A stretch of 64,000 nucleotides of DNA from Candidatus Aquiluna sp. IMCC13023 (GTDB lineage: Bacteria; Actinomycetota; Actinomycetes; Actinomycetales; Microbacteriaceae): positions 124,001-188,000 of the forward strand of contig NZ_AJKR01000002.1 in the NCBI RefSeq assembly GCF_000257665.1, given 5' to 3'. The position numbers were made by a program, and so were the translations under genes. Shown here one piece after another: positions 27,987 through 54,880 of this stretch. The notes beneath the pieces are model-generated. The model searched no databases, was not told the DNA's origin, and saw nothing but the letters and a program-made list of their open reading frames with translations. Position 1 is the stretch's first letter. Each line of letters begins with the position of its first letter.

Positions 27987-29180
27987 TTAGCGCAGTTTCC
28001 CCCGCCAGGCGCTGAATGATTTTACCGAGCCTGAGTGTGGGAGTTTTAGCCAAGGGTATGGGTGGACCTCGGCAAGGGTTTGGAATTTCCCAAAACTTGG
28101 AACTGGTGCGTGAGTAACCGCGACTTTATTTGCTTTAGCGAATTCAACTGGGTCACCAAGATAAACCGATAAGTCTCTTCTGGTAGCTAGATCTTGAAGT
28201 GTCTCCAGGTAAAAATAGATGCGCTTAGAAGAGAGCTGCAATTTGGCTAGCGCTTGCTCGTTGAAGACGAAAGCCACTGGAAGATCTGGGTTAGCAGCCA
28301 TTGCTGGATCACTATCTCCCAAGGATTCAATCGTGAGTAGCACTAGGTCGGGTTTGTTGACTTGAACCGGAACACGCGGGCCGGTTGTTATTTCAGGGCT
28401 TGGGTCAAAGCTAAGCAAGGGATCAGTGGCTACCGGAGACAGCTCGCGATCGGCCGGAAACTTCTCTATTGGGCAGGCGGATTTCAGAGCGCAGGAGCCG
28501 CAGAGTTCTGGCGCACGCTTCTGGACTTGCCAGCGGGCAAAGCCGTAGGGCTTTCCGTTTCCGGAACCCACGGTCCACTGCCACCCAAGCAAGTTCGCAG
28601 CTCTGGAGCCATCAATTAGTTCTTGGTGCATGCGCTCTTGTCCGTGAAGCCAACCCTTGCCGTTGCGCACACTCCAGTGAGAGGCCAACCACATTCTGGT
28701 TTGGTTCACTAACCAACCATCTTGATGTAGCTCATCGAGCGCAAAGTCCACGCAAGCCATTCCTTCGGGCCAACCATCGCCCGGGGCATCCCAGGTTTGT
28801 TCAAACCTCAAATTGCTAAATAGCTTCTTGCCGATGCGTGCGTAGAGATGCCGGGCGTATTCCTGCCATAACAGCTCGTCTCGATACTTATCTCTGTCAT
28901 ACTGCGGTGCTTTGCCGGCCACATCCCAAAGCGTCGAGAGCGAAATAATGTTGTGACGAACATAGGGAGACATAACCGTTGCGCCCCGGCTGTCTAACGG
29001 CAGCACCTCAGAGCGATCTTTGGCATAGCCACGTAGTTGAAGATTTGAGAGCGCCAAATTAGCTGCTGTCTGGCCACCTGGAATCGAACTTCTTCCACCG
29101 CCAGAATGCAATCCAGTAAAGACTTCACCTACTAGCTGTTCGGCATCGGTGGTGATATCAAATTGCTTCAATTGGGCCAA
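27987..29180 (-). CDS. Circularly permuted photolyase/cryptochrome-like flavoprotein
   Basis: A 397-residue protein starting at TTG 29180. Residues 25-230 are the FAD-binding half of photolyases: GATVMSPYVRHNIISLSTLW, YRDELLWQEYARHLYARIG, DGWLVNQTRMWLASHW and GSRAANLLGWQWTVGSGNGK. Normally the alpha/beta antenna domain precedes this; here it follows, at about 278-365: PDLVLLTIESLGDSD, LPVAFVFNEQALAKLQ, KRIYFYLETLQDLA and LSVYLGDPVEF. Between them is a Cys cluster, C227-GS-C230 and C236 in CALKSACP. The order is therefore permuted relative to the standard family. Role as DNA repair enzyme or light sensor is open. A fragment of a second copy lies at 54.8 kb. Confidence 0.85.
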   Translation of the reverse strand: MAQLKQFDITTDAEQLVGEVFTGLHSGGGRSSIPGGQTAANLALSNLQLRGYAKDRSEVLPLDSRGATVMSPYVRHNIISLSTLWDVAGKAPQYDRDKYRDELLWQEYARHLYARIGKKLFSNLRFEQTWDAPGDGWPEGMACVDFALDELHQDGWLVNQTRMWLASHWSVRNGKGWLHGQERMHQELIDGSRAANLLGWQWTVGSGNGKPYGFARWQVQKRAPELCGSCALKSACPIEKFPADRELSPVATDPLLSFDPSPEITTGPRVPVQVNKPDLVLLTIESLGDSDPAMAANPDLPVAFVFNEQALAKLQLSSKRIYFYLETLQDLATRRDLSVYLGDPVEFAKANKVAVTHAPVPSFGKFQTLAEVHPYPWLKLPHSGSVKSFSAWRGKLR

Positions 29181-54459: not shown

Positions 54460-54777
54460 GTCAGTCCTCTGGCTAGCTAACGCACGGTTCTATAAAGATT
54501 CCCGCTTCGCGGAGTAAAGAGAGAAACCGTCCGGGGTCTACTTACTTGAGGATGCCCCGTCCCTGACATTTTTAGCTAGAAAGAATTTTTTAAAGAATCC
54601 GGATTCCTAGTTGACTACGTTTGCGTATTTCGGTCTAAAGCAGGTCTGAAGAATAATAACTTCGTGGTTTGAAGAAATTACACTTAGGCCCTGGGTTTGA
54701 CCCAGCGTGAATGAGGACACGTGCCCAACGTTCTGACTCAAACTTTGGCGCAGTCCTCTCTGACTAAGTTGGGATCT

Positions 54778-54880
54778 GGTGCAATTCTCCACGCCAGGCA
54801 CTGAATGACCTCACCAAACCGGAGCATAGGTGTTTTAACCACGGGTAAGTAAGGACTTTACAGAACTGTTCAAGCTTCTC
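54778..54880 (-). pseudogene. 3' fragment of a photolyase-like gene
   Basis: On the minus strand the frame reads YPWLKHLCSGLVRSFSAWRG, matching YPWLKLPHSGSVKSFSAWRG at the end of the permuted photolyase (27987-29180), with FCKV in place of FQTLAEVH just before. Nothing of the remaining gene is present. It lies directly downstream of the Wzt-type ATPase gene. Confidence 0.75.

What the first reader, a model, noticed from the sequence alone, without database searches (positions are those of the whole stretch)
27987..29180. Circularly permuted photolyase/cryptochrome-like flavoprotein with a Cys cluster
FAD-domain motifs fill residues 25-230, and the alpha/beta antenna-type domain, normally N-terminal, follows at 278-365. 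Between them lie C227, C230 and C236. I know no named photolyase class with this order, so it may define a new architecture, possibly with an iron-sulfur or zinc site at the domain joint. A sunlit freshwater habitat would give it relevance.
Basis: partly seen in the sequence, partly recalled or inferred. Interest (0 to 1): 0.8.

Follow-up and report, generated by a model that had tools for sequence, protein, structure and literature searches.

The report
Inverted photolyase with iron-sulfur cysteines
The gene encodes a DNA-repair-type flavoprotein whose two domains stand in the opposite order from textbook photolyases and which carries four invariant cysteines for a probable iron-sulfur cluster; the inverted layout is already in print, but this actinobacterial lineage looks uncharacterised.

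Summary
[quoted passage not shown] Profile comparison shows the latter to be a relative of the canonical N-terminal antenna domain (E 5.5e-5 directly; through Deinococcus relatives 1.2e-9 and 2.3e-13; the two comparisons with class I photolyases beat 40 of 40 shuffles each). The claim of a new architecture fails. NewPHL photolyases have an inverted topology (2020; seen only through a citing paper), and picocyanobacterial Phr4/5/6 (2022) have this order, the four cysteines at matching spacing (85,3,6 against 84,3,6) and UV phenotypes. Rhodoluna lacicola CPF2 is probably an actinobacterial member (inferred). New here: distribution (20 of 296 sampled Actinomycetota genomes, four Deinococcus plasmids, one Myxococcota MAG), profile evidence for the domain swap, and an active-site argument: the position of the His essential in (6-4) enzymes is Asn in 77 of 77, as in CPD photolyases. 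I favour CPD repair over the published (6-4) guess; this is inference, and the published UV data partly oppose it.

The parts
27987..29180 (-). whole gene, 397 aa plus stop
   Evidence: relatives
28461..29129 (-). N-terminal FAD/catalytic domain, residues about 18-240
28875..28877 (-). E102, aligned with the glutamate of class I CPD photolyases (E. coli Glu274, number recalled)
   Evidence: 77 of 77; alignment
28752..28754 (-). C143, first predicted Fe-S ligand
   Evidence: 77 of 77 and 35 of 35; aligned with the FeS-BCP Cys
28692..28706 (-). N159-Q160-T161-R162-M163, lesion-facing motif of CPD type
   Evidence: N159 77 of 77 and 35 of 35; M163 77 of 77 and 30 of 35
28575..28583 (-). W200-Q201-W202, FAD-proximal Trp motif
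   Evidence: W200 and W202 77 of 77
28545..28547 (-). Y212 of KPY, aligned with PhrB Tyr424
   Evidence: 77 of 77; alignment; Tyr424 role from passages of PMC4619345
28473..28502 (-). C227, C230 and C236, remaining predicted Fe-S ligands (CxxCx5C)
   Evidence: 77 of 77 and 35 of 35
28389..28460 (-). linker, residues 241-264
   Evidence: between the domains; split point used
27990..28388 (-). C-terminal antenna-type alpha/beta domain, residues 265-397

Best explanation
An inverted photolyase: an N-terminal FAD domain of class I-like sequence carrying a [4Fe-4S] cluster on C143/C227/C230/C236, followed by an antenna-type alpha/beta domain that is N-terminal in ordinary photolyases. Proposed mechanism: blue light excites reduced FAD, FAD gives an electron to a UV lesion, most likely a cyclobutane pyrimidine dimer, the ring splits and the electron returns; W200 and W177, perhaps with W137, reduce FAD; the cluster is mainly structural, holding the lid over the lesion pocket. 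Shown: domain order, homology of both domains, invariance and matching of the four Cys. Inferred: FAD and Fe-S occupancy, light dependence, lesion type, any antenna chromophore.
For: FAD part against class I photolyases: hhalign E 6.5e-22; against FeS-BCPs: E 1.6e-8 with four Cys on four Cys. C-domain against class I: E 5.5e-5 on residues 4-82 of an N-terminal domain, score 38.6 against at most 22.1 in 40 shuffles. Deinococcus C-domain against class I: E 1.2e-9 over 6-154 including the linker, 67.9 against at most 24.8 in 40 shuffles; against the window family: E 2.3e-13 (no shuffles). Two canonical photolyases carry a match to residues 276-352 and 264-351 on the N-terminal side of their FAD matches, in the same ORF (E 3.8e-4, 5.0e-4). 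Model pLDDT 95.4, pTM 0.93. N159, E102, W105, R162 and W202 77 of 77. PhrB His366 is essential for (6-4) repair (PMC4619345, passages); its aligned position here is N159.
Against: RS9916 phr4/phr5, same order and cysteines, is read by its authors as (6-4): its loss lowered survival after UV-C, not UV-B, and in E. coli its UV-C protection did not differ between light and dark, which fits neither a simple CPD photolyase nor photorepair at all. PhrB Tyr430, needed for efficient repair, is Q218 in the alignment. M163 is L in 4 and T in 1 of 35 further loci. Foldseek with the C-domain model gave no hit at E<=0.001 (best 0.011, class II photolyase). A cryptochrome-type signalling role is not excluded.
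Confidence: 0.55

Rival explanations
1. A (6-4) photolyase with inverted order, as PMC9426592 proposes for Phr4/5 and Phr6.
For: Four Fe-S Cys as in FeS-BCPs; Y212 aligned with PhrB Tyr424, essential for lesion binding; UV-C-biased phenotype of phr4/phr5.
Against: The position of the essential His366 is Asn in 77 of 77 and 35 of 35. The same genome already has a separate PF04244 FeS-BCP-type gene.
Confidence: 0.2
2. A cryptochrome-like light sensor rather than a repair enzyme.
For: R. lacicola cpf2, probably an ortholog, is listed among putative light sensors with light/dark-patterned transcripts (PMC8591293, passages).
Against: In that paper cpf2 shares its expression group with the photolyase phrB; the authors' favoured sensor is CryB; the catalytic residues listed here are invariant.
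Confidence: 0.2
3. A zinc or other metal site instead of [4Fe-4S].
For: Four cysteines alone could bind zinc (general knowledge).
Against: One-to-one profile alignment with the four Cys of FeS-BCPs; in Cc(6-4)PL the corresponding Cys bind [4Fe-4S] (PMC12082625, passages).
Confidence: 0.05

Closest known systems
Phr4/Phr5 and Phr6 of Synechococcus/Cyanobium (PMC9426592)
   Same: FAD domain first and photolyase domain last; four Fe-S Cys with spacing 85,3,6 (here 84,3,6); some members split in two genes, as in Deinococcus QL22 (258-aa and 174-aa reading frames overlapping by 4 bases).
   Different: Other phylum; sequences not fetched, so kinship is by order and spacing alone.
NewPHL / SPL / Phr7 (Emmerich 2020 and Xu 2021, neither held here; described in PMC13274461 and PMC9426592 passages)
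   Same: Inverted domain topology; only two of the classical Trp triad positions fixed here, and D. shibae NewPHL is said to have a Trp dyad (PMC8948257, passage).
   Different: Phr7 is said to lack the Fe-S Cys. Five alphaproteobacterial inverted proteins that I take to be of this type (not tested against D. shibae NewPHL) lack the CxxC motif, and their C-domain profile is not significantly similar to this family's (E 0.069) or to class I (E 0.015).
FeS-BCP / prokaryotic (6-4) photolyases (PhrB, CryB)
   Same: Four Fe-S Cys and KPY motif; Foldseek hits PhrB 4dja E 3.2e-4.
   Different: Opposite domain order; Asn instead of the essential His; FAD domain far closer to class I (E 6.5e-22 against 1.6e-8).
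Class I CPD photolyases
   Same: FAD core and active-site motifs; antenna-domain homology.
   Different: Opposite domain order; an Fe-S segment follows the WQW region in place of the class I C-terminal part.
Rhodoluna lacicola CPF2 (rhola_00011000)
   Same: R. lacicola has phrB, cryB and cpf2; the window genome has a class I photolyase, a PF04244 gene and this one.
   Different: Its sequence was not fetched; orthology is inferred.

Membership tests
Photolyase/cryptochrome superfamily | FAD_binding_7 domain | tested here: met
   E 1.4e-9, above the gathering score
Inverted Fe-S photolyases (Phr4/5, Phr6) | FAD domain N-terminal, antenna-type domain C-terminal | tested here: met
Inverted Fe-S photolyases (Phr4/5, Phr6) | four Cys at spacing about 85,3,6 | tested here: met
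   84,3,6; positions of RS9916 Phr4 read from PMC9426592
Inverted Fe-S photolyases (Phr4/5, Phr6) | sequence clade with the cyanobacterial proteins | not tested
NewPHL | inverted topology | tested here: met
   as above
NewPHL | no Fe-S cysteines (as stated for Phr7) | tested here: not met
   four invariant Cys
NewPHL | repair of CPDs in single-stranded DNA | not testable with these tools
   needs an assay
FeS-BCP / prokaryotic (6-4) photolyase | four Fe-S Cys | tested here: met
FeS-BCP / prokaryotic (6-4) photolyase | His at the PhrB His366 position | tested here: not met
   N159 in 77 of 77
FeS-BCP / prokaryotic (6-4) photolyase | N-terminal DPRP domain (PF04244) | tested here: not met
   no PF04244 in the Pfam scan up to E 1
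Class I CPD photolyase | N-terminal antenna domain (PF00875) before the FAD domain | tested here: not met
   no PF00875 hit up to E 1; order inverted
Class I CPD photolyase | Glu, Asn, Arg-Met and WQW active-site motif (recalled) | tested here: met

The most novel reading that the evidence does not exclude
An inverted photolyase lineage that carries an Fe-S cluster yet repairs CPDs, breaking the equation of Fe-S cluster with (6-4) specificity, and showing that the antenna domain can work from the far end of the chain or as a separate subunit (split pair in Deinococcus QL22).
Probability: 0.35. Interest if true: 0.6.

Novelty: new member of a known kind. Interest (0 to 1): 0.42.

Why it matters
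The role of the [4Fe-4S] cluster in photolyases is called unknown or still elusive (PMC12082625, abstract and passages). A small, inverted, naturally divergent family with a CPD-like active site separates the cluster from the (6-4) active site, and natural split and fused forms let the role of the antenna-type domain be tested. Freshwater actinobacteria respond to light through an unidentified sensor (PMC8591293, passages), and this gene is one of a few candidates.

Tried and rejected
A new architecture: rejected, prior art in PMC9426592 and PMC13274461.

Viral origin: the viral-contig scan matched 39 stretches and none encodes a relative; 8 phage records match only the FAD part, at under 60% identity and under 80% coverage.

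A single origin of all inverted proteins: neither shown nor rejected. On a 49-row tree of FAD domains (19 of the 77 family rows, 4 Deinococcus, 6 inverted without Fe-S, 11 class I, 9 FeS-BCP) the backbone is unresolved and long branches meet; holding the 29 inverted rows together gives p-AU 0.39, the 23 with Fe-S 0.41. Rows dropped: only 9 of 30 class I candidate loci passed my motif filter, and Halobaculum was left out for lacking the WxW motif.

Counting motifs by regular expression missed 7 of 35 loci (an earlier pattern missed 21); replaced by alignment, 35 of 35.

8-HDF as antenna pigment: F0 synthase CofH was not found in the window's genome, so 8-HDF is unlikely unless imported; lumazine synthase is present but is nearly universal, so it says nothing.

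Promoter/terminator scan found nothing above shuffles.

Conserved operon: pdxH is next to the gene in only 5 of the 80 loci (L001-L004, L007), some of which have short flanks.

Full report
What is there. The ORF at 27987-29180 lies on the minus strand and encodes 397 aa. The window belongs to a 1.36-Mb genome in 6 contigs, 99.5% complete. The nearest named relatives are an uncultured Microbacteriaceae MAG and an uncultured Aquiluna MAG, both 95% identical, and the pdxH and ABC genes beside it are kept in L001-L004, so it is an Aquiluna-like freshwater actinobacterium (inference). Upstream on the other strand is pdxH; downstream on the other strand are a CcdA-like gene, a redoxin, a YeeE/YedE-like transporter and a rhodanese-like gene (names by my reading of the sequence).

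Domain order. Pfam finds only FAD_binding_7, and PDB sequence matches cover about 28-224. The AlphaFold model (77 sequences, pLDDT 95.4, pTM 0.93) shows an all-helical N-terminal part and an alpha/beta C-terminal part. Foldseek aligns only about 190-255 columns of it to photolyases and cryptochromes (the 50 rows listed; best 2j07, E 2.0e-6), as expected if order prevents a full-length sequential match. Three sequence tests tie the C-terminal domain to the canonical N-terminal antenna domain. First, hhalign of 77 C-domains against 9 class I photolyases aligns residues 4-82 of the latter, E 5.5e-5, probability only 66%; 40 shuffles reach a score of 22.1 against 38.6. Second, the C-domain of three Deinococcus relatives aligns with the whole class I antenna domain and linker (6-154), E 1.2e-9, 67.9 against at most 24.8 in 40 shuffles, and with the window family's C-domain, E 2.3e-13. 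Third, in the phylum search two ordinary photolyase ORFs (G247, G129) carry a weak match to residues 276-352 and 264-351 on the N-terminal side of their FAD match (E 3.8e-4, 5.0e-4). Structure is weaker evidence: the C-domain model alone (pLDDT 87.1) has no Foldseek hit at E<=0.001; 10 of the first 15 rows, including the top three (E 0.011-0.032), are class II photolyase structures.

Cysteines. C143, C227, C230 and C236 are invariant in 77 of 77 sequences and 35 of 35 further loci. Profile alignment with nine FeS-BCPs, one from the same genome, puts four Cys on four Cys (E 1.6e-8). In Cc(6-4)PL the corresponding set C349, C437, C440, C453 binds [4Fe-4S] (PMC12082625, passages). Mutating PhrB's ligands gave insoluble or unexpressed protein (PMC4619345, passages), so a structural role is the cautious reading.

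Active site. The FAD domain is closer to class I (E 6.5e-22) than to FeS-BCP (E 1.6e-8). E102, W105, N159, R162, M163, N196, W200 and W202 are invariant in 77 of 77; M163 is replaced in 5 of 35 further loci. PhrB His366, essential for (6-4) repair, aligns with N159. Y212 aligns with Tyr424, essential for lesion binding in PhrB, but Tyr430 aligns with Q218. The outer Trp of the classical triad is not kept (W130 in 38 of 77), while W200 and W177 are (77 of 77) and W137 is in 76 of 77. This points to CPD repair. Against it stand the UV-C-biased and, in E. coli, light-independent effects reported for phr4/phr5 (PMC9426592).

Distribution. In 296 Actinomycetota genomes 68 match the profile at E<=1e-3, mostly over the FAD part of ordinary photolyases; 20 (own genome included) match at full length with E below 1e-160. 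In the family sample 16 of 199 have it, one with two copies. Named loci include Cryobacterium, Klenkia, Modestobacter, Patulibacter, Nocardioides, Acidimicrobiia MAGs and one Myxococcota MAG. Of 122 plasmid records with a match, 3, all Deinococcus, cover at least 80% of the query; a fourth, Deinococcus QL22, has the two domains in two reading frames overlapping by four bases. All four Deinococcus proteins carry a C..C...CP motif and an upstream C.

Known or new. Inverted topology is published for NewPHLs (PMC13274461, passages; the original by Emmerich et al. 2020 is not held, and its content is recalled) and, with the Fe-S cysteines, for Phr4/5/6 (PMC9426592). R. lacicola CPF2 is called an uncharacterised cryptochrome-photolyase family protein (PMC8591293, passages). 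My searches (open-licence papers only) showed no paper describing actinobacterial or Deinococcus members with this architecture. Verdict: a real, widespread, little-studied family; a new member of a known kind.

Noticed in passing
window 54745-54847, minus strand: 103 bp with 72% DNA identity (E 2e-9) to the 3' end of the photolyase gene and about 31 bases past its stop: a relic of a second copy's end, beside ABC-transporter and glycan genes.
   Followed up: partly
L008, L010, L011, L012, L013, L024, L061, L068, L075; L109:1749-2693: A FAD/NAD(P)-binding oxidoreductase (renalase-like by my reading) lies near the family gene in 9 of 80 loci, and a distant homolog lies next to the inverted photolyase of Asticcacaulis.
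   Followed up: partly
L108:3010-4301: Deinococcus sp. QL22 plasmid: FAD domain (258 codons with stop) and antenna-type domain (174 codons with stop) in two reading frames overlapping by 4 bases, parallel to phr4/phr5.
   Followed up: partly
L109, L164, L165, L166, L167, L171: Inverted FAD-first proteins without the CxxC motif in Alphaproteobacteria and one Bacteroidota plasmid, the five alphaproteobacterial ones probably NewPHL; DUF3429 or AarF/UbiB-kinase genes recur beside four of them.
   Followed up: partly
G325 C1:818381-819565 and C1:843964-845136: Two full-length copies of the family in one genome, 65% identical to the window protein each.
   Followed up: no
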